DNA of 64,000 nucleotides from the IMG/VR virus record IMGVR_UViG_3300026484_000295, positions 1 through 64,000 of that record. One strand, written 5' to 3'. Below the pieces are notes generated by a model. The model made no database searches and was not told the origin of the DNA. It saw nothing but the letters and a program-made list of their open reading frames with translations. Position numbers and translations under genes: made by a program. Origin of the DNA: a virus. Each line of letters opens with the position of its first letter. The first letter of the stretch is position 1. Shown piece after piece: positions 3,537 to 57,350 of this stretch.

Positions 3537-3614
3537 TGGTACGCCCACCAGGATTCGAACCTGGGACCTACGCCTTAGAAGGGCGTTACTCTAATCCTGC
3601 TGAGTTATGGACGC
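3537..3614 (-). tRNA. tRNA-Arg (UCU)
   Basis: A full cloverleaf on the minus strand with encoded CCA. Acceptor GCGTCCA pairs with TGGGCGT, the T-arm is GGTTCGAATCC, and the anticodon loop is CTTCTAA. It reads AGA, a favoured codon in this AT-rich genome. Confidence 0.93.
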
Positions 3615-3627
3615 ATCGTTAAAAAAA

Positions 3628-3773
3628 TCTCAAAATATTATAATCCATTTGGTACCATCAGATCAATTTTGAGACCCATATCGCCACCCTCTAGAAAGGT
3701 TTGTGATATAGTAGGGTTATTGCTTGTTTGCTGACCATCAGCACAATCTATATTCCAAAGAATACACATTGTG
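3628..3773 (-). other. structured tRNA-spacer RNA; alternative 43-codon ORF (3638-3769)
   Basis: On the minus strand this spacer holds a CACAAT/ATTGTG hairpin (3742-3747 with 3768-3773), GCTGA/TCAGC (3730-3742), and a TCTCAAAAT/ATTTTGAGA helix (3628-3636 with 3666-3674) followed by a T-run, which is terminator-like. An ORF starting MCILWNIDCADGQQ also spans it but has no visible SD. A processed small RNA seems at least as likely as a peptide. Confidence 0.35.
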
Positions 3774-3796
3774 TTGGTGTTTTTATTTATACATAT

Positions 3797-3805
3797 ATTA
3801 TACAA
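3797..3805 (-). promoter_or_regulatory. TTGTATAAT promoter of the tRNA-Arg unit
   Basis: Minus-strand TTGTATAAT preceded by a T-rich tract, upstream of the structured spacer and tRNA-Arg. The same word recurs upstream of each other tRNA unit. Confidence 0.5.
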
Positions 3806-3891
3806 AAGTTTACTTTAAATTCATCTTAAATTTATTAAAATTTAGAAAAAATTGTTTTTTTAGAAAAATATAATACGTAAGAAGTGGGTAA

Positions 3892-3966
3892 TGGCTCCGG
3901 ATACTGGATTCGAACCAGTGACCAAATGATTAACAGTCATCTACTCTACCGCTGAGCTAATCCGGA
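3892..3966 (-). tRNA. tRNA-Asn (GUU)
   Basis: Cloverleaf with encoded CCA. Acceptor TCCGGAT/ATCCGGA, D-arm GCTCAGCGGTAGAG, anticodon loop CTGTTAA, T-arm CTGGTTCGAATCCAG. Confidence 0.95.
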
Positions 3967-4073
3967 ATAATTCTTTTTAACGCAAAGTTACGTTCAATTT
4001 TATACATTGAAAACTCAAGTAATTCCTCGTTACTAACAGATATTTTTAAACATTAAATATCAAAGTATTTTAA

Positions 4074-4150
4074 TGGTGCCGATTTGAGGATTTGAACCCC
4101 AGGCCTGCTGATTACAAATCAGCTGCTCTAGCCAACTGAGCTAAATCGGC
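4074..4150 (-). tRNA. tRNA-Thr (UGU)
   Basis: Cloverleaf with encoded CCA. Acceptor GCCGATT/AATCGGC, anticodon loop TTTGTAA in a GCTGA/TCAGC stem, T-loop TTCAAAT. It reads ACA. Confidence 0.95.
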
Positions 4151-4158
4151 ATAAATAG

Positions 4159-4257
4159 GGTTTTAAAGCTATGGAATATTCCTTAAAACCATTATACAAT
4201 ATAGGCTACATTTAAGTTCTTTTTATCTTTTTCCTATATTGGAGTGCCATATCACTC
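4159..4257 (-). other. structured spacer, three consecutive stem-loops
   Basis: Three helices: 4159-4166 with 4183-4190 (GGTTTTAA/TTAAAACC), 4198-4205 with 4233-4240 (AATATAGG/CCTATATT), and 4242-4246 with 4253-4257 (GAGTG/CACTC). The stretch 4151-4515 has no other convincing gene. It may contain RNA-processing signals or small RNAs of the tRNA precursor. Confidence 0.4.
4191..4199 (-). promoter_or_regulatory. TTGTATAAT motif next to tRNA-Thr
   Basis: Minus-strand TTGTATAAT 41 nt upstream of the tRNA-Thr 5' end. It overlaps the base of the AATATAGG helix. Confidence 0.4.
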
Positions 4258-4312
4258 TACAAAAAGTTTTATTAACTCTTTATAGAATTATATTTCGTTT
4301 TTATTTATATGT

Positions 4313-4321
4313 ATTATACAA
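4313..4321 (-). promoter_or_regulatory. TTGTATAAT promoter upstream of the structured spacer
   Basis: Minus-strand TTTTTGTATAAT. It would transcribe the three-hairpin spacer and the tRNA-Thr, Asn and Arg units. Confidence 0.45.
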
Positions 4322-4515
4322 AAATTTTTATTAATTTTATCTTAAATTTTGATTTTTTCAAAATTTATTGATTATCTTCTAATATATCACCTAAAATAGG
4401 ATTATTAAATAATTTATCAATTTTAATTCCATCATTCACTCTTATCACGTATTTTCTTTTATTAATTAGTGATTTTCATATGTTTTTAGAAATAAATAAT
4501 AAAAAGGAGGAAGAT

Positions 4516-5169
4516 TTGATATATTACATAGTTTATAAAATTACAAATTTAATTAATAATAAAATATATATTGGCGTACACAAAACTAATAATATTGATG
4601 ATGACTATATGGGGTCTGGAAAATTGATTAAAAGTGCAATAAAAAAATATGGAAAAGAAAACTTTAAAAAAGAAATTATCGAGGTATTTGACAATTCAGA
4701 AGATATGTTTAATAAAGAAAAAGAGTTAGTTAATGAATCATTTATTAATGATAAAAATACATATAATATTGTTGAAGGTGGATATGGTGGTTTTGACTAT
4801 GCAACGGAAATTTCCAAAAAATTTAAAAAAGGTATTTATCAAGATGATTTTCATAAAAAACTTGCAGATATTAGTCGTGGAAACTTTAAAAACAATAAAA
4901 AATTAGCAAAAAAAGCCTCTGAATTAAGTCATAGTCCTGAGGCTATTAAAAAAAGAAATGAAACTCGTAGGAAAAATAAGAAATCAAATGATTATAGAAT
5001 GTGGATAACAAATGATATTGAAAATAAATATATTTTAAAAATAGAACCTATTCCTACTGGCTGGAGAAAAGGAAAAATTCAACGAAAAGAAGCATGTCCT
5101 CATTGTGGAATAAAAATGGGTGTTTGTGGAGCTTTTTATAAACATATCGAAAATTGTGATGGTGATTAG
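4516..5169 (+). CDS. GIY-YIG homing endonuclease (TTG start)
   Basis: 217 aa. I start it at TTG 4516 because SD AAGGAGG (4504-4510) lies 5 nt upstream; an in-frame ATG at 4480 has no SD. The GIY-YIG nuclease core opens the protein (YYIVYKITN, then KIYIGVHKT). A lysine-rich DNA-binding linker, a MWITN...IPTGWRKG motif seen in Seg-type enzymes, and a C-terminal zinc finger (CPHC with H...C) follow. This is a selfish element in the tRNA cluster, transcribed against the tRNAs. Confidence 0.85.
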   Translation: MIYYIVYKITNLINNKIYIGVHKTNNIDDDYMGSGKLIKSAIKKYGKENFKKEIIEVFDNSEDMFNKEKELVNESFINDKNTYNIVEGGYGGFDYATEISKKFKKGIYQDDFHKKLADISRGNFKNNKKLAKKASELSHSPEAIKKRNETRRKNKKSNDYRMWITNDIENKYILKIEPIPTGWRKGKIQRKEACPHCGIKMGVCGAFYKHIENCDGD

Positions 5170-5201
5170 TTTAGAACGGATTTGAAGAATAATTCAAATA
5201 A

Positions 5202-5287
5202 TGGTGTCGAGAGAGGGATTTGAACCCTCACGGTCTATGACCACTGGATTTTAAGTCCAGCGCGGCTACCAGTTACGCCATCCCGAC
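5202..5287 (-). tRNA. tRNA-Leu (UAA)
   Basis: Type II tRNA with a long variable arm and encoded CCA. Anticodon stem CTGGA/TCCAG, loop CTTAAAA. It reads TTA, the commonest Leu codon in AT-rich genomes. Confidence 0.94.
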
Positions 5288-5295
5288 ATTTTAAA

Positions 5296-5366
5296 AGAGA
5301 TAGAATCAATAGAGTGTGTTTCCTAAATTCCAAATAATTCGATGTAATCTCTATCTTTAATTCTCT
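5296..5366 (-). repeat. stem-loop element, copy 1 (no tRNA inside)
   Basis: Outer helix 5296-5300 with 5362-5366 and inner helix 5309-5314 with 5349-5354, separated by an internal loop. The right flank (5339-5370) is almost identical to 5757-5790 around the permuted tRNA. The enclosed sequence here is an unrelated stretch of about 34 nt. Confidence 0.6.
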
Positions 5367-5372
5367 AATAAA

Positions 5373-5381
5373 ATTATACAA
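5373..5381 (-). promoter_or_regulatory. TTGTATAAT promoter of the tRNA-Leu unit
   Basis: Minus-strand TTTTTTTTGTATAAT directly upstream of stem-loop copy 1 and tRNA-Leu. Confidence 0.5.
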
Positions 5382-5480
5382 AAAAAACTCTTAAAAATAC
5401 CTTAATTTAAGTATTTCTATGAAATTTGTATTTTTATTTATTCTCTAAAAATAATTTTTTAGAAAGTTTTCATATTATTT

Positions 5481-5557
5481 TGGTCGTCCCTGGAAGATTT
5501 GAACTTCCGACCTCTCCGTTATCAGCGGAACGCTCTAACCAACTGAGCTAAGGGACG
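5481..5557 (-). tRNA. tRNA-Ile (GAU)
   Basis: Cloverleaf with encoded CCA. Acceptor CGTCCCT/AGGGACG, anticodon loop CTGATAA, T-loop TTCAAAT. Confidence 0.94.
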
Positions 5558-5567
5558 GTATTATCAA

Positions 5568-5642
5568 TGGTGACCCCGAGGAGAATTGAACTCCTGTAAC
5601 ATGGATGAAAACCATGGATCCTAACCGCTAGACGACGGGGCC
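5568..5642 (-). tRNA. tRNA-Glu (UUC)
   Basis: Cloverleaf with encoded CCA. Acceptor GGCCCCG/CGGGGTC, anticodon loop TTTTCAT in a CATGG/CCATG stem, T-loop TTCAATT. Confidence 0.94.
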
Positions 5643-5646
5643 ACTT

Positions 5647-5786
5647 AGAGAGATCAAATCAATAAAGATATAATAAGATGCTCTACCGCTGAGCTACCTA
5701 CTATCCACTAAGAGTTAGTAGGGTTGGATTCGAACCAACGACCATCCGCTTAAAAGGCGATGTAATCTTTATCTTTAATTCTCTCT
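5647..5786 (-). repeat. stem-loop element, copy 2 (encloses the permuted tRNA)
   Basis: Outer helix 5647-5653 with 5780-5786 (7 bp) and inner helix 5662-5669 with 5765-5772 (8 bp). Compared with copy 1, paired positions change together (ATAGAG/CTCTAT against ATAAAG/CTTTAT), which supports a selected RNA stem. It would bring the outer ends of the permuted tRNA halves together. Confidence 0.65.
5677..5759 (-). tRNA. circularly permuted tRNA-Lys (UUU): 3' half precedes 5' half
   Basis: On the minus strand the 3' half comes first (5759-5716): CGC, loop CTTTTAA, GCGGA, T-arm GTTGGTTCGAATCCAAC, acceptor CCTACTA. Then a 12-nt spacer (5715-5704), then the 5' half (5703-5677): acceptor TAGTAGG, D-arm TAGCTCAGCGGTAGAGC, ATC. 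Rejoined, they give a 72-nt canonical tRNA with 7/7 acceptor pairs and a full anticodon stem (TC+CGC with GCGGA). CCA is not encoded, unlike the other tRNAs here. Maturation would need cutting of the acceptor loop and ligation within the anticodon stem. Confidence 0.75.
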
Positions 5787-5817
5787 AATATTGTTATATC
5801 GAATTGATATGTTGAAA

Positions 5818-5826
5818 TTATACATT
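5818..5826 (-). promoter_or_regulatory. ATGTATAAT promoter of the permuted tRNA unit
   Basis: Minus-strand ATGTATAAT about 30 nt upstream of stem-loop copy 2. It could transcribe permuted Lys, Glu and Ile together. Confidence 0.4.
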
Positions 5827-5891
5827 AAAAATACTTAATTTAAACTTAATTTTATGTTTTTAACAGTAATTAACATTATTTAACACATACA

Positions 5892-5899
5892 CATAAATA
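5892..5899 (+). promoter_or_regulatory. late-type promoter CATAAATA
   Basis: One mismatch to T4 late TATAAATA, about 40 nt upstream of the lipoprotein ATG. Confidence 0.35.
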
Positions 5900-5939
5900 A
5901 AATCGACATATTAAAAAAATTAATGTCAGGAGAAATTAG

Positions 5940-7037
5940 ATGAATTTTAAAAAAATGATATTATTAGTTGTCAGCAGTTTATTAATAGTAGGATGTAATA
6001 TTGATAAAAACATTAACGATATTAATGATACTGATAAACCTGATGAGATAAGATGTAAAAATGCACCAAACGTTATTCTAGATAATGATAACTATGATCC
6101 AGATTGGTTGGTTACACTAGTAACAGGTTTGGCATTGGATAGGGATTGTAAGATTAATCTTATAGGTGTAATGATTAATGGAACCGATACACATAATAAA
6201 GCAGGTCTAATGTATAATACGGTGCTTACTTATTATGGAGTATCTGATAGAATTCCTATTGGTATTAATCATCATTATCAAATGAGAACAACACCTACGA
6301 AAGCAACATCAGATACACCATATATTGATCCAGATTTTAAGGGTACTCAAAAGAGAATAACAGACTTCCCAAGTGACGGATTATTAGATTCTGAAAGACA
6401 GGATGTACAAACAACTTTATGTGCCTTGCTAGAAAAACATGATAATATTATATATGTTACTGGAGGTCATTTACAAAATTTGCAAGCCCTTATTGAAACT
6501 AAGGAGTGTAATGGTCCTGAACTTATTAGAAAGAAAATAAAAAGATTTATTTTTGGAACTGGATATAACAAAGAAACAGAAGGAGAAGCAGAAATGAATT
6601 TTTCTGAGGGTAGGTATAATACTACAGCAGCATCAATTGCAGCTAATTCTGTATTTAATTCTGGTTTAGATGCGGAAGTTCCGTTTTGGTTCCCTCATGA
6701 TGGTTTTGATAGAAGTACAACATCATGTAGAATTGGAGATCAATATAGAGATTTAGTTCATACAACAAGTCCAATGGCTTTTGTCTATGCAATTGATACG
6801 TATGGGACTTGGGGAGATCATTGTATGGGAGATAGTGAAATTCTATTAGAAGCTGCTAATATATCTATTGAAGAAAAAATTGTTACCCCTAAAAGAGAAG
6901 TTTGTATAGAATTAAATTCTAAAAATGCGATTATTTATATTAATGAGGGCAAACATTGCAATCATTATATTAGAAGTATTAATGTTGGTGGCGAATTAAA
7001 AATAGTTGGTATTTTAAATCAATTATTAAAAGAATAA
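5940..7037 (+). CDS. secreted lipoprotein, nucleoside-hydrolase-like
   Basis: 365 aa. An N-terminal lipoprotein signal (hydrophobic segment, then LIVGC with lipidated Cys19) shows export and membrane anchoring. The mature protein resembles the inosine/uridine-preferring nucleoside hydrolase fold: VILDNDNYDPDW stands where the family has its DxDxxxDD metal site, with a later VTGGHLQNLQAL segment. The aspartate cluster is not canonical, so catalysis is unsure. Possible roles are nucleoside salvage outside the inner membrane or alteration of the host envelope. SD AGGAGA. It ends 3 nt from the opposing tRNA-Arg. Unusual phage cargo. Confidence 0.6.
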   Translation: MNFKKMILLVVSSLLIVGCNIDKNINDINDTDKPDEIRCKNAPNVILDNDNYDPDWLVTLVTGLALDRDCKINLIGVMINGTDTHNKAGLMYNTVLTYYGVSDRIPIGINHHYQMRTTPTKATSDTPYIDPDFKGTQKRITDFPSDGLLDSERQDVQTTLCALLEKHDNIIYVTGGHLQNLQALIETKECNGPELIRKKIKRFIFGTGYNKETEGEAEMNFSEGRYNTTAASIAANSVFNSGLDAEVPFWFPHDGFDRSTTSCRIGDQYRDLVHTTSPMAFVYAIDTYGTWGDHCMGDSEILLEAANISIEEKIVTPKREVCIELNSKNAIIYINEGKHCNHYIRSINVGGELKIVGILNQLLKE

Positions 7038-7039
7038 TG

Positions 7040-7116
7040 TGGTACCCCGAGTAGGATTCGAACCCACAACCCCCGGAGCCGAAATCCGGCGCTCTATCCA
7101 GTTGAGCCATCGAGGC
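7040..7116 (-). tRNA. tRNA-Arg (UCG)
   Basis: Cloverleaf with encoded CCA. Acceptor GCCTCGA/TCGGGGT, anticodon stem CCGGA/TCCGG with loop TTTCGGC, T-loop TTCGAAT. It reads CGA and other CGN codons. Confidence 0.92.
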
Positions 7117-41176: not shown

Positions 41177-42331
41177 ATGACACTATCTCACAAAAAAATA
41201 AAATCTATTAAAAAAGTTAAATATTATGATAAAGTATATGATATAACTATGAAGTCCAATCCACACACATTTTTTGCTAATAATATTCTAGTCCATAACA
41301 GTTGTTATTTTAGAATAATGGAGGCAGAAAATTTAGATGAAGCTCAAAAAATTGGTGCCGATGTTGTAAAAGCATGTGATGAAGGTAGCATTCCTATGCT
41401 GGTTAAAGATATTTTTAATGGTGATGATGTCATGAGATCCGATTTTGAGGCTATTGCACGTTCAACTTTATCATACGGTAAAAAGAAACAATATGCGTTT
41501 CTAAAAGGTTGGGAAGACGGCGAAGTACTTCCAAAACCAAAATTAGGTATTACCGGTCTATCTATTAAAAGATCTGATTCACCTAAACAACTATCTATGG
41601 AAATGAAACCATTCTTTACTGAAATTATGAAAGGATTAAAACACGAAGAAATTAAAGAAGCTATGGATAAAATCGAAGGCGATTATGACGATCTAAGCTT
41701 ATACGATTTATCCGCAAAACGTTCAGCAAACAATTTAGGTAAATATTTAAAAGCATTCAATTATGAAATTGAATATAAATCTAGGCCCTATAATATAGAA
41801 AAAATTGATGAATTTTTAAAAGAAGAGTATCAAGATATAAAAATTAAAATAGATGATAAAATATATTTTGATTTTATGAGAGAAGGTAAAGGACGTTATT
41901 CATTAGAAGATGGCAATTTAATAAAGGATGTTAATGGTGAAATTTATATTGAAGCAAAGGTAAAAATGGTTGTTCCATTTCATATTAAAGCATCAATTTT
42001 ATATAACTATCTATTAGATGAATATAATTTATCGTCTGAATTTAATCAAATATTAAATGGCGAAAAAATTAAACTTTTTTACATTAAACCTACAAAAATA
42101 AATATCAAATATACAAATAGTGATGGTGAAGTATTTGATATGATACAAGAATTTGATTGTATTGCATTCCCTTCTAGTTCTAAACACATACCAACATTTA
42201 TTAATGATTTTACTCCAGATAAAAAGAGAATGTTGGAAACTTATTTCTTTGGTAAAATGGAAACCATTTTTGATGTTATTGGGTTTAGTAAAGAAAAACT
42301 TGAAAATATAGCTATGGATTCACTATTCTAA
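41177..42331 (+). CDS. 43: split-intein C-half fused to family B DNA polymerase C-terminal fragment (gp43-like)
   Basis: 384 aa. Residues 1-41 are an intein C-half: VYDITMKSNPHTFFANN (block F) and ILVHN with H40/N41, then Ser42 as the +1 nucleophile. Residues 42-384 continue the polymerase exactly after SDTD: SCYFRIMEAENLDE, KKQYAFLKGWEDG, and the T4 gp43-like end CIAFPSSSKHIP with a C-terminal ENIAMDSLF that matches gp43's clamp-binding ASLDFLFG tail. The N-half is at 20156-20959. Combined intein length is about 159 aa, with no endonuclease domain. Confidence 0.92.
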   Translation: MTLSHKKIKSIKKVKYYDKVYDITMKSNPHTFFANNILVHNSCYFRIMEAENLDEAQKIGADVVKACDEGSIPMLVKDIFNGDDVMRSDFEAIARSTLSYGKKKQYAFLKGWEDGEVLPKPKLGITGLSIKRSDSPKQLSMEMKPFFTEIMKGLKHEEIKEAMDKIEGDYDDLSLYDLSAKRSANNLGKYLKAFNYEIEYKSRPYNIEKIDEFLKEEYQDIKIKIDDKIYFDFMREGKGRYSLEDGNLIKDVNGEIYIEAKVKMVVPFHIKASILYNYLLDEYNLSSEFNQILNGEKIKLFYIKPTKINIKYTNSDGEVFDMIQEFDCIAFPSSSKHIPTFINDFTPDKKRMLETYFFGKMETIFDVIGFSKEKLENIAMDSLF

Positions 42332-43898: not shown

Positions 43899-43925
43899 TT
43901 AAGTTTTTTGCACTATAACCGATAT
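43899..43925 (+). promoter_or_regulatory. sigma-28 (FliA) type promoter of the flagellin gene
   Basis: TTAAGTTT (43899-43906), an 11-nt spacer, then ACCGATAT (43918-43925). The consensus is TAAAGTTT-N11-GCCGATAA; this has 7/8 and 6/8 matches. It differs from every phage promoter motif in this window, so flagellin should follow the host flagellar regulon. Confidence 0.75.
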
Positions 43926-43934
43926 TGTAATTGT

Positions 43935-43971
43935 AAGAGAAATATATTCTTTATTATATCATATTTCTCTT
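43935..43971 (+). other. 11-bp hairpin in the flagellin 5' UTR
   Basis: AAGAGAAATAT (43935-43945) pairs with ATATTTCTCTT (43961-43971). It lies just downstream of the predicted start site and about 55 nt before the ATG. It may stabilise the mRNA. Confidence 0.55.
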
Positions 43972-44025: not shown

Positions 44026-44829
44026 ATGTTTAATTTAGGACAAGCTCAATCAATTTTAGGAATTAACAATTCAAACGATCATATTTATAGATTGAATGAA
44101 CAGTTACAAACAGGTAAAAGAATCAACAAAGCAGCTGATGATGCTTCTGGGATGGCAATCGCAAATCAATTAAGATCACAAGCAAATGGTCTGGGACAAG
44201 CAATTAGAAATTCTAATGAAGCTATTTCATTAACAAATATTGCGGATGGTGCATTAGAAGAATATACAAAAATTATTATGGAAGTTAGAGATAAAGCTGC
44301 ACAAGCTATTTCAGATTCAAACTCTACTGAGTCTAGAACAGCACTTCAAAATGATATTAATGAATTAATTAAATCAGCTGAAGCTATAGCAAACGACACA
44401 TCATATAACGGTATTAAACTGTTAGACGGCACATTTACAAATAAAGTATTCCAAACTGGTGCATATAGTGGACAAACAACTTCAATCTCAATTTCAAGTA
44501 CTAAAACTGCTGATTTAGGTATCGATGGATTAACTGTTGATAGTGCTACAAACGCAGCAACTGCGTTAGATGATATTGATGCAGCATTGAAATCATTAGA
44601 TGGAATTAGAAGTGGTATTGGTTCTGTAACACAAGGTCTTGAATCAAAAGTTAGAAATATGGAAGCAACACAACAAAATGTTTTAGCAGCAGAATCTAAT
44701 ATTAGAGATGTTGATGAAGCAGCTGCAAAAGCAGAATTAGATAATTGGACAGTAAGAAATCAAGCATCAATGTTTGCATTTCAAATGGCTGCAAGACAGC
44801 AACAAAATATTTTAAGATTATTCCAATAA
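44026..44829 (+). CDS. flagellin
   Basis: 267 aa. Conserved D0/D1 N-terminal helices (LQTGKRINKAADDASGMAIA, then QLRSQANGLGQAIRN) and C-terminal helices (SNIRDVDEAAAKAELDNW and ending ARQQQNILRLFQ). The hypervariable D2/D3 region is almost absent (short beta part, about 140-185), giving a minimal filament subunit. No signal peptide, as expected for type III export. SD GGAGG. Sigma-28 promoter and GC-rich hairpin downstream. A flagellin on a phage is exceptional. It could enter the host filament, or be a virion fibre (less likely given the FlaG and FliS-like neighbours). Confidence 0.92.
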   Translation: MFNLGQAQSILGINNSNDHIYRLNEQLQTGKRINKAADDASGMAIANQLRSQANGLGQAIRNSNEAISLTNIADGALEEYTKIIMEVRDKAAQAISDSNSTESRTALQNDINELIKSAEAIANDTSYNGIKLLDGTFTNKVFQTGAYSGQTTSISISSTKTADLGIDGLTVDSATNAATALDDIDAALKSLDGIRSGIGSVTQGLESKVRNMEATQQNVLAAESNIRDVDEAAAKAELDNWTVRNQASMFAFQMAARQQQNILRLFQ

Positions 44830-44832
44830 TTA

Positions 44833-44863
44833 TTTAGGACGGGGTTAATAACCCCGTCCTAAA
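44833..44863 (+). terminator. GC-rich 14-bp hairpin after flagellin
   Basis: Arms 44833-44846 and 44850-44863 with a 3-nt loop. Its GGACGGGG core is the most GC-rich run in this region. It has no U-tract, so it may be an attenuator or 3' stabiliser that lets flagellin mRNA exceed the downstream genes. Confidence 0.6.
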
Positions 44864-44883
44864 ATACAAATAGGAGAATTATT

Positions 44884-45150
44884 ATGGGTGAATATGCAAA
44901 TAGTGTCGACAGTTTTTTAATACTATTTTACAACCAGTTATCAAAAAAAATGAGCGAACTAAAATCAATTAAAAATATTAAAGAAAGAGAAGAATTAAAA
45001 TCCAAAATGTTGGAAGCTTTAGATATGCTTACAATGAGTGCACAAGATGAAAAATTTAAAAATTTTTCAGAATTTTTGGCAACCAAAATCATTTTAAATA
45101 AATTTGATGAAGTAAAAGAAATATGTGATACTGTTAAACAAGGAGTTTAA
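44884..45150 (+). CDS. small helical protein, possibly FliS-like flagellin chaperone
   Basis: 88 aa, all helical (NSVDSFLILFYNQLSKKMSE ... ALDMLTMSAQDEKFKN). Size and position between flagellin and FlaG suggest an export chaperone such as FliS or FliT. I see no diagnostic motif, so the call depends on context. SD AGGAG. Confidence 0.4.
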   Translation: MGEYANSVDSFLILFYNQLSKKMSELKSIKNIKEREELKSKMLEALDMLTMSAQDEKFKNFSEFLATKIILNKFDEVKEICDTVKQGV

Positions 45151-45152
45151 TC

Positions 45153-45461
45153 ATGATAGATTCAATCGGAAAAATTAATCAAACGTTCAATATTCAAGCA
45201 CAAAGCAAAGTAAATATTCAACCGGAACAAAAAGCGGATTTGAGCAATTTAAATAATGAAATTCAAACAATCAATGAATTAGTTGAAAATAAAAATATCA
45301 AAGTGGAATTAAATGAAGATATTAATATGATACAAGTCAAAGAATTAGATAAAACAGGGGAAATAGTTTTAAAATCTATTCCACCTGAAGATTTTATAAA
45401 AAGGGTAAAATATTTCAAAGAAAATATATTACCAACTCTAATGATGGATGAAAGGGTCTAA
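45153..45461 (+). CDS. flaG: FlaG-family flagellar protein
   Basis: 102 aa. The variable N-terminal half precedes the FlaG core: VELNEDINMIQVKELDKTGE, then IPPEDFIKRV. In Campylobacterota FlaG affects filament length. It starts 2 nt after the small helical gene and forms a three-gene flagellar cassette with flagellin. It overlaps the convergent NMNAT gene by 4 nt. Confidence 0.78.
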   Translation: MIDSIGKINQTFNIQAQSKVNIQPEQKADLSNLNNEIQTINELVENKNIKVELNEDINMIQVKELDKTGEIVLKSIPPEDFIKRVKYFKENILPTLMMDERV

Positions 45462-46225: not shown

Positions 46226-46306
46226 TTTTTCTCCTTAGTTATACCTTTTAACTTTAGTTAAATACTATAACAGTTTTTCTTTATTATACATAATTTTAAT
46301 CTAAAA

Positions 46307-46681
46307 TTATTTTAATTCACATCTAGAAATATGAAATGTGGAACTTTCTATATGTCCTTGCTTTCTATTATACACTTGCCATCCATTATCAGGATCGTTA
46401 AAAACTTCATATGTTTTACTCGGATAAATCCTTATCCCACCTTGAGGCGATAAACATATTAAAGATGGGTAATTATTTCTAACAAGATTAAGAGCTTTTT
46501 CTCTAAAATCAAATGATTTAAAAAAAAACATTTTAATAATTAAAAAAACAATCAATGTTGGAACAAGGACTATAACCCATGATCTACATAACAAACCAAA
46601 ATCTGTAGTACAAAATATATTAATTTTCTTAAATATTATATCAATAATATTAATGTTATTATTTTTATTTTTGATAGTCAT
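46307..46681 (-). CDS. single-pass membrane protein (124 aa)
   Basis: Hydrophobic segment at about 32-52 (LLCRSWVIVLVPTLIVFLII). The short C-terminal domain contains a phage-type CLSPQGGIRIYPSKTYEV. It overlaps the CCA-enzyme gene by 17 nt. Not recognised. Confidence 0.55.
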   Translation of the reverse strand: MTIKNKNNNINIIDIIFKKINIFCTTDFGLLCRSWVIVLVPTLIVFLIIKMFFFKSFDFREKALNLVRNNYPSLICLSPQGGIRIYPSKTYEVFNDPDNGWQVYNRKQGHIESSTFHISRCELK

Positions 46682-47956: not shown

Positions 47957-47964
47957 TATAAATA
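47957..47964 (+). promoter_or_regulatory. late promoter TATAAATA of cheY
   Basis: Perfect T4-type late element, 20 nt before the cheY ATG. SD AAAGGAGG lies between. Confidence 0.6.
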
Positions 47965-47984: not shown

Positions 47985-48344
47985 ATGAAAGTATTAGTAT
48001 TAGATGATAGCAAAACAATGTTAAGAATCATCACAAACACTTTAGCTAGAATAGGACATAAAGATGTTGTTACTGCTGAAGATGGGGTGCAAGGTTTAGA
48101 AAAGTTTAAAAATGATAAATTCGATATAATTTTAACCGATTGGAATATGCCAAATATGGATGGTTTAGCTTTTGTTAAAGCTGTACGAAAAATGAATGAT
48201 GATATACCAATCGTTATGATAACAACGGAGGGTGGAAAAGCTGAAGTAATTACAGCTTTAAAAGCTGGCGTGAACAATTATGTCGTTAAACCATTCACTC
48301 CACAAGTGCTTAAAGAAAAATTAAAAGATATACTTGGAGAATAA
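47985..48344 (+). CDS. cheY: CheY-type chemotaxis response regulator
   Basis: 119 aa, a receiver domain only. All phosphorylation residues are intact: D7/D8, phospho-acceptor D52 in LTDWNMPN, T80/T81, K102 in VVKPF. The stretch TTEGGKAEVITALKAGVNNY is very close to epsilonproteobacterial CheY, pointing to capture from such a host. Phospho-CheY binds the flagellar motor switch, so a phage copy may bias turning. Strong SD; a late promoter, not a host-type one. Confidence 0.95.
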   Translation: MKVLVLDDSKTMLRIITNTLARIGHKDVVTAEDGVQGLEKFKNDKFDIILTDWNMPNMDGLAFVKAVRKMNDDIPIVMITTEGGKAEVITALKAGVNNYVVKPFTPQVLKEKLKDILGE

Positions 48345-50710: not shown

Positions 50711-52330
50711 CTAGTTACCTGAATTAGCATCAAAATGATGTAAATGATATGACATATTACCAAAATAAGATGCATTTTGAGGTGTAGATGTATTATATTT
50801 TCTAATTTGTCTCCAACCACACCATCCATATCCCCATCCACCAGCAACAGTTATAGACGTTCCGTTACCCGATGAAGCCGAATGTGAAAAATAGTTTCCT
50901 GTATTTCCAAAATATGATGAATTACTAGGACTAGCAATGGTAATAACTTCAATTGAACCTTTTGGATTCCACCAACCGCCAAAGATAAAGCCTTTGATAC
51001 CATCAGTATTACCAACGTTACACCATCTGTGCCATCTTAAGCCACCAAAATAAGTTCCGTTTGATGGTGTTGAAATAGTGATATAATCCATATCTTTTGA
51101 TACACCCCACCACCACCAATGTTGTCTTCCACCGGCATTAACACCTTTAGTTCCATCAGTAATATGTGTTTGAGACCATTTTCTACCTCTATATGCCGTA
51201 CCAAAATTCTTTGAATTTGAAGGAGTAGTAATTGTTACATATTCAATATCTGATCTAGCAGACCACCAACTATTCCATCCTCCTGAAAATACACCTCTTA
51301 CACCGTCCGATACACCTTGAGCACCAACAGCTCTCCAAGTAGCATTTCCAAAATATTGTCCATTACCAGGTGTAGCAAATGTAACGTATTCATAAGTAGA
51401 AGACCATTGGTGACCCGGCCAACCACCTGTATGCCACAACCCTCTATTTCCACCAGTTACACCAATCGGTGAAAGAGTCATTTGTCTCGGAGCCCCAAAA
51501 AATTTAGCATTCATAGGAGTACTTATCTGCACATAAGTATATTCATTAGGACCTTGACCACATTTCCATCCTCTAGACATAACCATTCTATCACCTTGGA
51601 AACCCTTAACAATACGTCCTAATTTTACAGCATTATTAACATCATATACTAATTGTCCAAATTTTGCATTTGAACTATCAAATTTACCAATACTACGTTT
51701 AACAACGGCAGTACCCGTAGATTTATTCAATATAATAACACCTGTTGGTATTTTTGAAACATCATCCTCATTAGAATTAACCGTATAGATAAATGAATCT
51801 TTAGTAATATGATATTTCCCTCTATCACCAAGATAAATAGATCGATCTCTAATATAAAGTGTTTTGAATCTTAATGAAAACGAACCAAGATCAAACATTT
51901 CATTTCTTGATGGTGTGATATTACCAGAAGTTGAAAATTTTTCTTCAACTGTTAGTGCACCACTAATTGTACCACCAGATTTATCAAATTTATCATCTAA
52001 ATTTACATACCCTAGTACCCAATCTTTGATTTCTTGAATACTCTTTCCACCTATTTTACTGACATTAAAACCCCAGTCAGTACCATTAAATAGTTTCAAT
52101 GTATTCGTTGACGTATCAAACCACATTTGACCAGGTAATGAATTTTCAGGTTCATCTTCACTTGCTAAATTTTCAAGTATCTTAATAAAATTTTGGTTTA
52201 AATCTTCAATATATGATTCCGCACCCCTACCTATTAATGCAGTTGATACGACATCTTTTAAGATTTCTTTTGAACTAATATCAGCTATTACTTCATTTTG
52301 AGTATTCTTAACTGTAATTACCGTTGTCAT
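50711..52330 (-). CDS. tail fibre, propeller-like repeats, module A (539 aa)
   Basis: The N-terminal 200 aa is a conserved attachment part (LIGRGAESYIEDLNQNF, PGQMWFD, KIGGKSIQEI, SGGTISGALTV, LYIRDRSIYLGDRG). The C-terminal 300 aa consists of about six degenerate repeats of about 50 aa built on TPxNxxYFGN and SDGxRGVFxGGW, with tryptophan/tyrosine-rich variable stretches (for example HWWWWGVSKDMDYI). It ends in NSGN. The variable stretches probably contact the host receptor. Confidence 0.7.
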   Translation of the reverse strand: MTTVITVKNTQNEVIADISSKEILKDVVSTALIGRGAESYIEDLNQNFIKILENLASEDEPENSLPGQMWFDTSTNTLKLFNGTDWGFNVSKIGGKSIQEIKDWVLGYVNLDDKFDKSGGTISGALTVEEKFSTSGNITPSRNEMFDLGSFSLRFKTLYIRDRSIYLGDRGKYHITKDSFIYTVNSNEDDVSKIPTGVIILNKSTGTAVVKRSIGKFDSSNAKFGQLVYDVNNAVKLGRIVKGFQGDRMVMSRGWKCGQGPNEYTYVQISTPMNAKFFGAPRQMTLSPIGVTGGNRGLWHTGGWPGHQWSSTYEYVTFATPGNGQYFGNATWRAVGAQGVSDGVRGVFSGGWNSWWSARSDIEYVTITTPSNSKNFGTAYRGRKWSQTHITDGTKGVNAGGRQHWWWWGVSKDMDYITISTPSNGTYFGGLRWHRWCNVGNTDGIKGFIFGGWWNPKGSIEVITIASPSNSSYFGNTGNYFSHSASSGNGTSITVAGGWGYGWCGWRQIRKYNTSTPQNASYFGNMSYHLHHFDANSGN

Positions 52331-52345
52331 TTTTTCTCCTCTCCC

Positions 52346-52951
52346 TTATAGTTTCTTAGTTAAATAATAGTTATCTACTATTTTAGCTATTTCTACTTCT
52401 AAGTCTACAATTTCTTCTATTTTTTCTAAATCATTCTCAATAGTTGATAATGATTTTATACTACTTGAAATAGCTTCTTGAATTGAAGGAAAAATATCTT
52501 TGAACTTACTTTTAGATTTTTCATTCTCATCTTTATCATTCCAATCATCAACTGCAAATACCATTAAAGATTGAACTAATTTTTTAAGATCCACTAAATC
52601 ATCTTCAACGTCTTTCATTTCCCGTACTTTTGCACGAGTTACAAGTTTCAATTTAATATTATTTATAAAGGATTTTGCAACTTCCATATCACTTTTATCT
52701 TTTTCAGATAAATTAAAATTTGTAGATTCTGGAGCACCGTCATCTTCTTCTACTTGCGTTGATAGCAATTTTAAACCATTCGCTATAATAGCATCAACAG
52801 CAATAAAATCAAATTCATTATAATTATGAATTTTCTCCATTGGACAATCTGCTAAATTCCAACCTTCATAATATGCTAACCCTATTTCAATTCCCTGAGG
52901 GTGAACTCCACCAACTCCAGGGATAATATTTTCTTTATATATCACATACAT
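52346..52951 (-). CDS. fibre-module small protein B (201 aa)
   Basis: Second paralogue (IPGVGGVHPQGIEIGLAYYE, then REMKDVEDDLVDLKKLVQSL). Helical acidic C-terminus. It lies between fibres A and B, transcribed after fibre B. Confidence 0.55.
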   Translation of the reverse strand: MYVIYKENIIPGVGGVHPQGIEIGLAYYEGWNLADCPMEKIHNYNEFDFIAVDAIIANGLKLLSTQVEEDDGAPESTNFNLSEKDKSDMEVAKSFINNIKLKLVTRAKVREMKDVEDDLVDLKKLVQSLMVFAVDDWNDKDENEKSKSKFKDIFPSIQEAISSSIKSLSTIENDLEKIEEIVDLEVEIAKIVDNYYLTKKL

Positions 52952-52962
52952 CTTATATCTCC

Positions 52963-55035
52963 TTAATTACCCGAAAATGCTGCTGGGTATCTTAACCCGA
53001 TTGTAGCATTGCCAAATTTTGTTGCAGTACCACCATTAGCATACGAAATACTGTCTAGTGTTCTAGAATAACTACTACCACCTGCTGCTACCATTATAGA
53101 ATCATTTGAAACTGGTGTTGTTGAGTGTCTAGAATATGTTAAGTTACCAAATTGACTAGAATTACTAGGTGTTGCCAATGTTAATTTTTCTATACTATTC
53201 AAGTTGCTACCATTATAATGACCTCCGGCCCATAGACCATGAATACCATTAGATGATGCACCAGTCCAACCTCTACTTTGTTGCATTTTACCAAAAATAA
53301 TTGCATTTGATGGAGTTGATAAACTTACATATCTAAATTCCTGATTCGACCATCCATTAACACCTCTATCAAAAATTGCTTTTGTACCATCCGATACAGC
53401 CGCATTCCAATATGATGATGTTCCTAAATTTCCGTATTGTACAGCGTTCATTGGTGTTGCAAAGAGTACATAATTAGAAATCGTTTGATTGTATCGCCCA
53501 CCAAATATAACAGCTCTGTTACCGTCTGATGCAGCTTCAGCTCTCCAACCACCATAAAATCTTCCAAAATTCACAGCATTCATTGGTGTGGCAATCGTAA
53601 CATATTGAATACCCGTATAATTATGTTGGTGAAACGATAATCCTCTTGTTGAATCTGAAGCTCCTGCTGAATGACCTCCGGTTCTACATGTACCGAAATT
53701 TACGGCATTAGCTGGCGTAGGAATATTTATTTTTTGGATAATACCATGGTTCCATGAACCCATAAAAATACCTATATCACCTTTAAAACTATAATTATTT
53801 CCACCTATTACTGAACCATATTTTGAATCTTGTGATAAGGTTCTGAAAGTGCCGTTTGATGTACTAGCTTTAAAATTTGATTTTTTAACTATAGCTTCCC
53901 CTGTAGCTCTATTAAGTATTAATGAACCTGCTGGAACATTTGTAACAGAATCTGTTTCTTTTTCAACAGTATAAACAAATGAATTTTTATTAAATTCTTT
54001 ACCCACACCCATATAAATTGATGCATTTTCTGATAAGTGTAATGATCTATATCTTTTTGAAGGAGAACCTAAATCTTGAATTTCATTACCTGTCGGTATA
54101 ATATCCTTAGCTGGATGTAATGTATTGGATAATACTATTGAACCATTAATAGTTCCACCTGTTCGATCATATTTAACAGATAAATCAACACCTGATAGTA
54201 TATAACTTCTAAGTGATGTTAAATCTTTTCCATCTAAAGTTTCTGCTGATAAACTCCATGTATCGCCATCCCAAACTAATAAATTTGAATTAGGCATAGG
54301 ATTGCCATTTGAATTCGTTAAAGAGGTTAATGCTGTATGAGGACCCATACCTTCCGATGGAACTAATGATTCAAATGCTACTTGTGCATATGCATGTTTC
54401 TTTTCATCATAACCCTTTAAATCTTCTGATATAATACCAAATTTACCAGTACCAATCGCAGCATATGGATAACGCCAGTTCCTTTTCACTTTATGCCATG
54501 CTTTAGATTTTAATAAATCCATTCGTTTATTTAAATCCTTATTAGTGCCAATTGCATCGTATGAAACCATTATAAACATATCGTTTTCAGCAATAGTTCC
54601 AAGTTTTCTAGCCAACTGTGTTCTAGCCGCATTTGAACCATATGTATCATAATACCCAATAGATTTAACTTTTGTTCTAAAATTGGAATCAAAGATAACT
54701 AATGCTATACCTCTTCGATTTTTAATTCTAATCCCAGTATTACCTGCAAATTGTATATATCTACTAGCATTATAATTTAATCCTGTACCTCGTACATTAA
54801 TAATATTAGAGCCCTTTTTAGAATACCATAACTGACCAACAACAGGATTAGTAGGAGCTTTTTTTGAGGCAAAGTTTTCCAATAAAGCATAGAAGTTTTC
54901 ATTAACTTCTTTTAAATATGTTTCTGTACCCTTACCAAAAAGATTTATAGGTGTTGTTGAACTATCAATCGTTCCATCATTTATAGATGCAACAACCTTA
55001 TTTGATGTGTTTCGTATTTCAATATTTCCAGCCAT
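52963..55035 (-). CDS. tail fibre, propeller-like repeats, module B (690 aa)
   Basis: Same N-terminal plan as module A (LFGKGTETYLKEVNENFYAL, VGQLWYS, LDGKDLTSLRSYI, GGTINGSIVL). An extra insertion of about 130 aa at about 75-260 is absent from A and C. C-terminal repeats of TPxNAVxFG / SDGxxAxxxGG type. Ends in AFSGN. Confidence 0.7.
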   Translation of the reverse strand: MAGNIEIRNTSNKVVASINDGTIDSSTTPINLFGKGTETYLKEVNENFYALLENFASKKAPTNPVVGQLWYSKKGSNIINVRGTGLNYNASRYIQFAGNTGIRIKNRRGIALVIFDSNFRTKVKSIGYYDTYGSNAARTQLARKLGTIAENDMFIMVSYDAIGTNKDLNKRMDLLKSKAWHKVKRNWRYPYAAIGTGKFGIISEDLKGYDEKKHAYAQVAFESLVPSEGMGPHTALTSLTNSNGNPMPNSNLLVWDGDTWSLSAETLDGKDLTSLRSYILSGVDLSVKYDRTGGTINGSIVLSNTLHPAKDIIPTGNEIQDLGSPSKRYRSLHLSENASIYMGVGKEFNKNSFVYTVEKETDSVTNVPAGSLILNRATGEAIVKKSNFKASTSNGTFRTLSQDSKYGSVIGGNNYSFKGDIGIFMGSWNHGIIQKINIPTPANAVNFGTCRTGGHSAGASDSTRGLSFHQHNYTGIQYVTIATPMNAVNFGRFYGGWRAEAASDGNRAVIFGGRYNQTISNYVLFATPMNAVQYGNLGTSSYWNAAVSDGTKAIFDRGVNGWSNQEFRYVSLSTPSNAIIFGKMQQSRGWTGASSNGIHGLWAGGHYNGSNLNSIEKLTLATPSNSSQFGNLTYSRHSTTPVSNDSIMVAAGGSSYSRTLDSISYANGGTATKFGNATIGLRYPAAFSGN

Positions 55036-55048
55036 TTTTTACTCCTTC

Positions 55049-55696
55049 CTAACCTATCTTTTTTATCTTTTCAATATAATTAGATTTAACAATTCTTGAA
55101 ATAAATGTTTCATCTTTTATGATTTTTGGTATTTTATTTAAAAATTTAGTATCATTTACTCTAATATCTTTTTCATTTATCGTTGATACTAAACTGTCCA
55201 TCAACTCTTTCATAGGAAAATTAGCTTTTTCAGATTCTGATTTCATTTCATAATCTTCTAAGATATATCTCAATAAAAATTCTATTAAAAGTTTAGTATC
55301 CGATAAATCATCCTCAAAATCTTTAAATTGTCTTATCTTAGAACGTGTTATAAATTTTAATTCTAATTTATCTATATATTCTTTAGATAATGAGATTAAT
55401 TTTAATTCTTCTTCGCTTGAACCGAATTGTTCATTTTCTAAAGCTATTTCATTTGGCATGATATCCATATCTTCCTGTATAGGCTGATATGTTTCATTAT
55501 TCAACATCATACCTACGGCTATTGATTTAGGGATAGGATATAGTTTAAATTCTGAATATTTATCAAATTCTTCTTCAACCATAGCACATAATTTCCACCC
55601 ATTATATTCAGCCATACCTATTTCTATACCATCAGGATTAACTCCACCAACTAAAGGTATAACATTTTCTTTATATATTGCATATATTATATTCAT
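55049..55696 (-). CDS. fibre-module small protein C (215 aa)
   Basis: Third paralogue (IPLVGGVNPDGIEIGMAEYN, then RQFKDFEDDLSDTKLLIEFL). More diverged C-terminus than copies A and B. Confidence 0.55.
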   Translation of the reverse strand: MNIIYAIYKENVIPLVGGVNPDGIEIGMAEYNGWKLCAMVEEEFDKYSEFKLYPIPKSIAVGMMLNNETYQPIQEDMDIMPNEIALENEQFGSSEEELKLISLSKEYIDKLELKFITRSKIRQFKDFEDDLSDTKLLIEFLLRYILEDYEMKSESEKANFPMKELMDSLVSTINEKDIRVNDTKFLNKIPKIIKDETFISRIVKSNYIEKIKKIG

Positions 55697-55709
55697 AATT
55701 TTAATCTCC

Positions 55710-57350
55710 TTAATTTCCTGAAGCGCCAGAAGGTCTAGACCCTCTTCGCATCGTCATATTTCCAAAATTAATAGAATTCATAGGTGTTTGGATAGTTACT
55801 GATTCCATAGTATTATCCCACCATGTTGCTGCAGATACACCAGTTATACCATTTGATAAACCTATTCCCGCACTATTTCTACTTCTTCTAGTTCTTCCAA
55901 AATCAATACCATTACTAGGAGTAGCTATGGTAATATATTCAATATAATTATTAGTCCAATTACCATCCCATCCACCAAAATATAGGCCTTTAATAGTATC
56001 TGTTAGTGCTGATCCAGCTGGTCCTCTATGTCTTCTAGTACTACCAAAATAAATTGAATTTTTTAAAGTTTGAATAGTAATGTATTCTAATCTACTAGAC
56101 CATCCTCTTCTTGAATAACCACCAAATACTCCTCTTGTTCCAGAAGATACTGCCGATCCCCAATATCCTTGTTTAATAGTTCCAAATTTAGATGAATTAC
56201 CAGGTGTTTCTATTGTAATATAGGTTGCGATATAATGGTGTCCTCTAGGACCTGGTGTTCGAGCATTATAACCTGGACCAATGATACCCTTTGTCCCATC
56301 CGATACTGATGATGATCCATAATTCTCATAACCGATAGTTCCAAAATATGTAGCATTACTAGGAGAAGCAAAAGTAACATAGTCCATTTTTCCATTATGT
56401 GACCCATGCGAACCATTCCAACCACCTTGGAAAACTCCTCTTATTCCACTAGACATACCTGCACCCATATGACTTCTACCATATGTTAGATTTCCAAATG
56501 ATTGACCATTACCAGGTGTAGAGATAGTTATTTTTTCAATTGATGCATTACGATGACCACCAACAGAACCCCAACCTCCGGCTATCAATCCAATATCACC
56601 TAAAAATCTAAATTTATTCCCACCTATAACAGCTGAGTTTTGTTTATCATCAGCTAGTTTTCTAAATGTTTTATTATTAGCACCAAAAATACCAGTTGAT
56701 TTCTTAATAATAGCTTCACCTGTTTCCTGATGTAAAATAATTGCTCCTACTGGAAATTTTGACACATCAGAATTATCATTTTCAACAACATATACGAAGT
56801 TATTAGATTTAAACTTTAAACCTTTAGACTTATCACCTAACGTAATACCATCTTCTTTTAAATAAATATTTCTAAATCTATTATTTTTTCCACCAAGATT
56901 TGATTGTTCTGTTACAACGGGTAAAATTGATTTTTGAATTTGTACTGCTCCTGAAATATCTACTTCACCAGTAATAGTACCGCCAGTTTTAGATAATTTT
57001 CCAGTTGTATCCAATCCGGATAAAACATACTCACGCACACCGTCTAGTGTTTTTCCACCAATTTTATCGGCATTTGAAAGCCACTCAGAATTAGTTCTGT
57101 AATTAATTCTGTTATTAGCTTTGTCATACCATATCTGTCCTTCAACAGCTCCATCATTAGTAGATGCTTGAGGTGGTGTACTTTCACCTGCAAAATTTTC
57201 TAATAATTTAACAAAGTTGTCATTTATATCACCAATAAAATTTTCTACATTTTCACCAATTAGTGATGTTTCAAATGTTGAATTTATAGTATTTTCGGCA
57301 ATAGTGGCAATTTCTTGATTTTCAGTATTATATACTTTAATTTCAGCCAT
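55710..57350 (-). CDS. tail fibre, propeller-like repeats, module C (546 aa)
   Basis: First gene of the triplicated block. N-terminal part shared with A and B (LIGENVENFIGDINDNFVKL, GQIWYDKANN, KIGGKTLDGVREYV, SGGTITGEVDI). C-terminal repeats such as SSGIRGVFQGGWNGSHGSHN and TPSNATYFGTIG, arginine/glycine-rich in places. Ends in GASGN. A late promoter is at 57393-57400. Confidence 0.7.
   Translation of the reverse strand: MAEIKVYNTENQEIATIAENTINSTFETSLIGENVENFIGDINDNFVKLLENFAGESTPPQASTNDGAVEGQIWYDKANNRINYRTNSEWLSNADKIGGKTLDGVREYVLSGLDTTGKLSKTGGTITGEVDISGAVQIQKSILPVVTEQSNLGGKNNRFRNIYLKEDGITLGDKSKGLKFKSNNFVYVVENDNSDVSKFPVGAIILHQETGEAIIKKSTGIFGANNKTFRKLADDKQNSAVIGGNKFRFLGDIGLIAGGWGSVGGHRNASIEKITISTPGNGQSFGNLTYGRSHMGAGMSSGIRGVFQGGWNGSHGSHNGKMDYVTFASPSNATYFGTIGYENYGSSSVSDGTKGIIGPGYNARTPGPRGHHYIATYITIETPGNSSKFGTIKQGYWGSAVSSGTRGVFGGYSRRGWSSRLEYITIQTLKNSIYFGSTRRHRGPAGSALTDTIKGLYFGGWDGNWTNNYIEYITIATPSNGIDFGRTRRSRNSAGIGLSNGITGVSAATWWDNTMESVTIQTPMNSINFGNMTMRRGSRPSGASGN

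What the first reader, a model, noticed from the sequence alone, without database searches (positions are those of the whole stretch)
44026..45461. Flagellar cassette (flagellin, FliS-like protein, FlaG) on a phage
Flagellin with intact D0/D1 ends, a minimal central region and its own hairpin is followed by a small helical protein and a FlaG homologue. These are flagellar structural genes, not typical phage cargo. The phage might alter the host filament to keep cells swimming, change the receptor for flagellum-binding rivals, or alter surface antigenicity.
Basis: partly seen in the sequence, partly recalled or inferred. Interest (0 to 1): 0.88.

Follow-up and report, generated by a model that had tools for sequence, protein, structure and literature searches.

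The report
Flagellum-remodelling gene cassette of a jumbo phage
A giant bacterial virus carries its own flagellin with helper genes and a chemotaxis switch protein, and the flagellin gene has control signals that look like the host's own flagellin gene, so the virus may plug into and rework its host's swimming machinery.

Summary
It is not a chimera: a second record (289,880 bp) is collinear over about 157 kb and carries the same cassette in the same slot; flagellin is 91% identical, dN/dS about 0.06. New here: (1) a flagellar sigma-28-type promoter (43899-43925) with host-flagellin spacing, and no T4-type late promoter; (2) a leader with two GGA-loop hairpins, the second over the ribosome site, 21 nt apart, the published plan of the CsrA-controlled C. 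jejuni flaA leader; only 1 of 159 leaders in this contig has two; (3) a selectively rewritten D0 (N-terminus 17% identical to host flagellins versus 54% in D1), so 'intact D0' is wrong; (4) a Campylobacterota-type CheY 2.5 kb away; (5) in a more distant relative the same slot holds a hybrid histidine kinase. The small protein folds like FliS but has no sequence support. Best reading: a host-regulon-coupled cassette that feeds a phage flagellin into the host export gate and steers the motor; whether it sustains, alters or arrests swimming is open. Phage flagellin has a precedent (FR-phi FliCP/TldR); I found none for this architecture.

The parts
43899..43925 (+). sigma-28 (FliA)-type promoter TTAAGTTT-N13-CGATAT
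   Evidence: Same spacing as TAAAGTTA-N13-CGAT in 40 of 58 host flagellin leaders; rank 2 of all sites in 172 kb by a PWM from those leaders, chance about 2e-4 for this intergenic strand; boxes identical in G001
43937..43969 (+). 5' stem-loop of the flagellin mRNA leader
   Evidence: 9-bp stem in predicted folds of both phages; differences between the phages lie in its loop
43987..44003 (+). GGA-loop hairpin SL1 (TGGAA-AAGGAAA-TTCCA), putative CsrA site 1
   Evidence: plan matches C. jejuni flaA SL1 (PMC4894983)
44007..44023 (+). GGA-loop hairpin SL2 (TACAC-AATGGAG-GTGTA) enclosing the Shine-Dalgarno, putative CsrA site 2
   Evidence: GGA 21 nt from that of SL1, as in flaA
44026..44829 (+). 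flagellin, 267 aa, D1 retained, D0 rewritten, minimal centre
   Evidence: Pfam, alignment and domain identities, dN/dS 0.06
44833..44863 (+). hairpin after flagellin (terminator or 3' stabiliser; no long T-run here, T-run in G001)
44884..45150 (+). 88-aa four-helix FliS-like protein, putative flagellin export chaperone
   Evidence: AF2 pLDDT 84; FliS is the top structural match, Z 12.1; no sequence homology to FliS
45153..45461 (+). FlaG homologue, 102 aa
   Evidence: PF03646 31.0 bits vs cut-off 23.8
47957..47964 (+). T4-type late promoter motif TATAAATA upstream of cheY
   Evidence: motif enriched upstream of ORFs, 25 of 159; absent upstream of flagellin
47985..48344 (+). CheY, 119 aa receiver-only, D7/D8/D52/T81/K102 present
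   Evidence: 67-69% identity to Campylobacterota CheY; best solved relative H. pylori CheY 3gwg, E 1e-44; kept in G001

Best explanation
A flagellum-remodelling cassette of a lineage of jumbo T4-like phages that infect Campylobacterota-type bacteria. Proposed working: the host flagellar sigma-28 factor transcribes the phage flagellin in cells that are completing flagella (inferred from the promoter); the leader is translated only when CsrA is relieved, as for host flagellin (inferred from the hairpins); the FliS-like protein escorts the phage flagellin to the FlhA export gate and FlaG tunes traffic there (inferred from FliS/FlaG antagonism in C. jejuni); the phage flagellin, with D1 kept and D0 rewritten, enters or replaces the filament; CheY, from a phage late promoter, biases motor switching. 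Net effect: infected cells have an altered filament and swimming pattern. Shown: the genes, their conservation and constraint, the promoter-like and hairpin elements, the D0 rewriting. Inferred: every biochemical step and the direction of the effect.
For: Genuine phage and stable cassette: collinear with G001, 142 of 159 ORFs matching; flagellin under purifying selection, dN 0.053, dS 0.85. Host-type control: sigma-28 site with host spacing and no late promoter, whereas cheY has one; two GGA-loop hairpins, unique among 159 leaders and kept in G001, same plan as CsrA-bound flaA; all 8 leader differences between the phages fall outside boxes and stems (P about 0.04). Chaperone: FliS takes ranks 1-6 of the structural matches; FliS and FlaG compete at FlhA and set filament length (PMC12445086). 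CheY is a true Campylobacterota CheY. FliS-like, FlaG and CheY are among the 5 least conserved of 142 shared proteins while flagellin is average, as expected if they track different host partners. A related phage has a hybrid kinase in the same slot.
Against: FliS homology is not supported by sequence, and Z 12 for a helical bundle is borderline. The divergent D0 could prevent co-assembly. FlaG limits filament length in C. jejuni, which fits restraint as well as support. The sigma-28 site scores below every host site (13.3 vs 15.1 or more, though those trained the matrix). Only two phages carry the cassette in the collections searched; the host is not identified; no expression data. The low leader divergence partly reflects a locally conserved block (DnaJ dS 0.25).
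Confidence: 0.5

Rival explanations
1. Motility arrest: the phage flagellin with a foreign D0 is a terminating or poison subunit, while the phage FliS-like protein and FlaG occupy FlhA and CheY biases the motor, so the host stops spending energy on swimming and filament growth.
For: D0 rewritten at both ends while D1 is kept; FlaG lowers flagellin delivery and limits filament length in C. jejuni (PMC12445086); CheY under a late promoter.
Against: Host-type sigma-28 and CsrA-type control fits a filament subunit made in step with the host's own better than a poison; strong purifying selection along the flagellin.
Confidence: 0.25
2. Secreted flagellin-like protein or decoy: exported through the host gate but not built into the filament, acting outside the cell, for example as a decoy for flagellum-binding phages.
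For: Divergent D0 and minimal centre, compatible with export without polymerisation; a FliS-like protein beside it.
Against: D1 kept at 54% mean identity; secretion cannot be tested here.
Confidence: 0.12
3. RNA-level function: the flagellin leader chiefly titrates host CsrA, as C. jejuni flaA mRNA does, to reset host regulation, with the protein secondary.
For: Two CsrA-type hairpins 21 nt apart in both phages; flaA mRNA titrates CsrA (PMC4894983).
Against: The protein is under strong selection and travels with FliS-like and FlaG genes.
Confidence: 0.06
4. Virion component: the flagellin fold has been recruited as a phage tail or fibre protein.
For: Tail-fibre-like genes lie 6-13 kb away at 50-57 kb.
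Against: Neighbours are FliS-like, FlaG, nucleotidyltransferase and DnaJ genes, not structural genes; no late promoter upstream; flagellar-type control elements.
Confidence: 0.04
5. Assembly chimera with bacterial DNA.
For: Flagellar genes are rare on phages.
Against: Same arrangement in a second record, collinear with flanks 84-98% identical; no bacterial genome searched has a close copy, best 46-47% over full length.
Confidence: 0.01

Closest known systems
FR-phi prophages of Enterobacter: FliCP flagellin with TldR RNA-guided repressor of host flagellin (PMC13418256)
   Same: A phage carries an alternative flagellin that remodels the host filament.
   Different: FR-phi is a temperate siphophage with a TldR; here a T4-like jumbo phage with FliS-like, FlaG and CheY genes, host-type sigma-28/CsrA-type control, and no TnpB/TldR family protein in this contig; the TnpB of G001 lies 237 kb from the cassette and keeps D/E/D residues by eye.
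C. jejuni flaA leader with CsrA-FliW control (PMC4894983)
   Same: Two stem-loops with GGA in the loop, the second over the ribosome site, 21 nt apart; sigma-28 promoter.
   Different: On a phage; binding not tested; longer predicted leader with an extra 5' stem-loop; second loop reads TTGGA in G001.
C. jejuni FliS/FlaG control of flagellin export at FlhA (PMC12445086)
   Same: Flagellin, a FliS-fold protein and FlaG act together.
   Different: The phage FliS-like protein is shorter and without sequence similarity; effect on FlhA unknown.
Helicobacter pylori CheY (PDB 3gwg)
   Same: Receiver-only CheY with the catalytic residues.
   Different: Phage-encoded; fast-evolving between the two phages (64% identity).
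Jumbo T4-like myoviruses (Salmonella phage SE_PL, Serratia phage BF)
   Same: Major capsid protein about 32% identical over 97%; large genome.
   Different: Different hosts; no flagellin of these records appeared in the tblastn search of the phage collection.

Membership tests
Bacterial flagellin | Flagellin_N and Flagellin_C domains above curated cut-offs | tested here: met
   130.5/26.6 and 58.2/23 bits
Bacterial flagellin | Conserved D0 N-terminus (MGFRINTN-type) and D0 C-terminus | tested here: not met
   D0-N 11-23% and D0-C mean 37% identity to 76 host flagellins, against host-host means of 62% and 75%; start codon supported by SD and upstream stop
Bacterial flagellin | Export by the flagellar type III system and polymerisation | not testable with these tools
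   needs experiment
FliS | PF02561 or NCBIfam match | tested here: not met
   none in G000 or G001; none in Pfam and NCBIfam scans; hhalign to 5 host FliS within shuffled controls
FliS | FliS four-helix fold | tested here: inconclusive
   FliS ranks 1-6, Z 10.5-12.1, rmsd 1.7-4.2 over 81-88 residues; Foldseek E 0.4; helical bundles under Z 13 are ambiguous
FliS | Binds flagellin C-terminus | not testable with these tools
   needs pull-down
FlaG | PF03646 above gathering score | tested here: met
   31.0 and 25.0 vs 23.8 bits in the two phages
FlaG | NCBIfam FlaG equivalogs above cut-off | tested here: not met
   25.4 vs 107, 22.5 vs 117 bits
CheY | Receiver domain without output domain, phosphoacceptor Asp and DD/T/K set | tested here: met
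   Response_reg 104.4 vs 30.2; residues invariant in both phages
CheY | Closest to chemotaxis CheY rather than other receivers | tested here: met
   H. pylori CheY 1e-44 best; 67-69% to Campylobacterota CheY
FR-phi flagellin-remodelling phage | TldR (TnpB-derived) next to the flagellin | tested here: not met
   no PF07282 in this contig; G001 copy 237 kb away
CsrA-controlled flagellin leader | GGA in two hairpin loops, one over the SD | tested here: met
CsrA-controlled flagellin leader | CsrA binding | not testable with these tools
   needs gel shift
T4-like jumbo myovirus | T4-type major head, contractile sheath, late promoter motif | tested here: met

The most novel reading that the evidence does not exclude
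A jumbo T4-like phage has built a parallel flagellin supply line: its own flagellin, export chaperone and export-gate regulator, wired into the host's sigma-28 and CsrA circuits by mimicry of the host flagellin leader, together with its own chemotaxis switch. A rewritten D0 would let the phage flagellin select its own chaperone and set the filament's core, so that an infected cell is a steered or re-coated swimmer.
Probability: 0.35. Interest if true: 0.92.

Novelty: new variant of a known kind. Interest (0 to 1): 0.78.

Why it matters
Phage control of host flagella by flagellin exchange is known mainly from one temperate system. This would be a second, independent architecture in large T4-like phages, one that uses the host's own transcriptional and post-transcriptional flagellin controls instead of a phage regulator. 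It makes testable whether D0 can be recoded together with a matched chaperone, whether a phage gene obeys or titrates CsrA, and whether large phages steer host swimming.

Tried and rejected
Chimera: rejected by collinearity. Sequence homology of the 88-aa protein to FliS or to the small protein encoded after host fliS: none. TldR/TnpB control as in FR-phi: no such gene in this contig; the G001 TnpB is far away, and a deleted copy of its element sits between the cytidylyltransferase and the 124-aa gene. Phage-borne CsrA or FliW: none in three phages (fragments, so absence is weak). AF2 of the flagellin from two sequences: low confidence, not used. Back-translated scan of genome contigs with the phage flagellin found no relative; replaced by a DNA pattern and six-frame searches. 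Tree: the two phage flagellins form one clade on a branch of 2.1 changes per column outside all sampled host flagellins, so donor and rooting are unresolved. More cassette-bearing phages: none found with flagellin, FlaG, FliS-like or polymerase queries. Literature searches for a phage flagellin with FlaG or CheY: nothing beyond FR-phi and FlaGrab; subscription papers are not covered.

Full report
What is there. The window is the first 64 kb of a 172,404-bp virus record, linear and hence probably a fragment. ORFs at the stated positions encode a flagellin, an 88-aa protein and a FlaG homologue. The contig is a T4-like contractile-tailed phage by its major head protein and sheath, and its capsid protein is closest to those of 340-470 kb jumbo myoviruses at 32-34% identity. 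No record of the phage collection is close at DNA level.

Not a chimera. Record IMGVR_UViG_3300026521_000003 (289,880 bp, here G001) is collinear with this contig from 15.7 kb to its end, 142 of 159 ORFs matching, with the cassette in the same slot between dnaJ and a cytidylyltransferase gene. The first 15.7 kb of this contig have no match in G001, so if the order holds a full genome would exceed about 305 kb (inference). Among 397 sampled Campylobacterota genomes and 30 further genomes no flagellin is more than about 47% identical over its full length. A third, more distant relative (121,946 bp, G002; neck-region protein 75% identical) has no flagellin match in its record and carries a PAS-histidine kinase-receiver protein, with other genes, in the slot between the CCA-type nucleotidyltransferase and the DNA polymerase piece. 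The slot thus seems to vary in host-signalling cargo (inference from three genomes).

Selection. Between the two cassette-bearing phages the flagellin is 91% identical with dN 0.053 and dS 0.85. FliS-like, FlaG and CheY are 45-62% identical by tblastn, among the five least conserved of 142 shared proteins (median 93.7%), while flagellin ranks 57th from the bottom. The simplest reading is a constrained flagellin core with partners that follow different hosts (inference).

Flagellin anatomy. Aligned to 76 host flagellins, the phage protein keeps D1 (54% mean identity in D1-N, 48% in D1-C; host-host 64% and 62%), but its D0 N-terminus is 17% identical (host-host 62%) and D0 C-terminus 37% (host-host 75%). 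Host pairs as diverged in D1 as the phage still share 58% of D0-N on average, minimum 31%, against a phage maximum of 23%. D0 lines the filament core, carries export information at the N-terminus and is the FliS-binding part at the C-terminus (established knowledge). A rewritten D0 next to a diverged FliS-like protein suggests a matched pair (inference). The start codon is supported by a Shine-Dalgarno sequence and an upstream in-frame stop.

Control region. Upstream lies TTAAGTTT-N13-CGATAT at 43899-43925. In 40 of 58 leaders of cellular flagellins the same spacing joins TAAAGTTA-like and CGAT boxes. With a matrix built from these leaders the phage site ranks second in 172 kb on both strands; six simulated genomes gave three sites as good in about 2 Mb, hence about 2e-4 for this intergenic strand. 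It scores below all the training sites, so it is a plausible, not a perfect, site. The T4-type late motif TATAAATA stands upstream of 25 of 159 ORFs including cheY, not of the flagellin; a one-mismatch version (TTTAAATA) in the flagellin leader is not kept in G001. Downstream, two hairpins with GGA in seven-base loops, the second enclosing the Shine-Dalgarno, lie 21 nt apart; of 159 leaders in the contig only this one has two such hairpins, and both are kept in G001. This is the plan of the C. jejuni flaA leader, where CsrA binds both loops (PMC4894983). The eight differences between the phages in the 162-nt leader all avoid the promoter boxes and the stems (P about 0.04). The thermodynamic z-score for the full leader is strong in G001 (-3.45) and weak here (-1.33), and two sequences allow no covariation test. 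Part of the leader's similarity may come from its lying beside a conserved block (dnaJ dS 0.25).

Partners. The 88-aa protein has no family match and profile comparison with five host FliS sequences is no better than shuffles, but AF2 gives a confident four-helix bundle for which FliS structures take the first six places, Z 10.5-12.1. I call it FliS-like, not FliS. FlaG passes the Pfam score in both phages but not the NCBIfam equivalog scores. In C. jejuni FlaG and FliS compete at FlhA and set filament length (PMC12445086). CheY at 47985-48344 is receiver-only, has the catalytic set, and is 67-69% identical to Campylobacterota CheY proteins. CheY also occurs in three other phage contigs (60-75% identity).

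Interpretation and novelty. The combination reads as a cassette that supplies flagellin, its delivery and its gating under host flagellin controls, plus a motor switch. Whether the outcome is sustained, altered or arrested swimming cannot be decided from sequence. Phage-encoded flagellin as such is known: FR-phi prophages carry FliCP with TldR (PMC13418256), and Bacillus phage EZ-2018a holds an unannotated flagellin. I found no report of flagellin with FlaG, a FliS-like protein and CheY on a large T4-like phage, in open papers only. Hence: new variant of a known kind.

Noticed in passing
window 41177-42331; L002 5158-6312; L011 18625-19782: The DNA polymerase C-terminal piece begins with an intein C-terminal segment in all three phages, suggesting a split, trans-splicing intein.
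   Followed up: partly
L011 13269-18515: In the relative G002 the cassette slot holds a PAS-HisKA-HATPase-receiver hybrid kinase and several unknown genes.
   Followed up: partly
L200, L201, L202 near position 6000: Three further phage contigs carry CheY (60-75% identity) in other neighbourhoods, without flagellin seen in the fetched stretch.
   Followed up: partly
L002 10300-10675; L218 1417-2607: G001 has an internally deleted copy of its TnpB element between the cytidylyltransferase and the 124-aa gene; the site is empty in this window (46226-46310). The full TnpB keeps D/E/D residues by eye.
   Followed up: partly
L208 1920-2825 (CP027117): Bacillus phage EZ-2018a carries an unannotated 301-aa flagellin.
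   Followed up: partly
window 3537-7116: Seven tRNA genes on the minus strand.
   Followed up: no
window 50711-57350: Three large tail-fibre-like proteins with repeated GG(W/Y)-rich motifs, each next to a small gene of one family.
   Followed up: no
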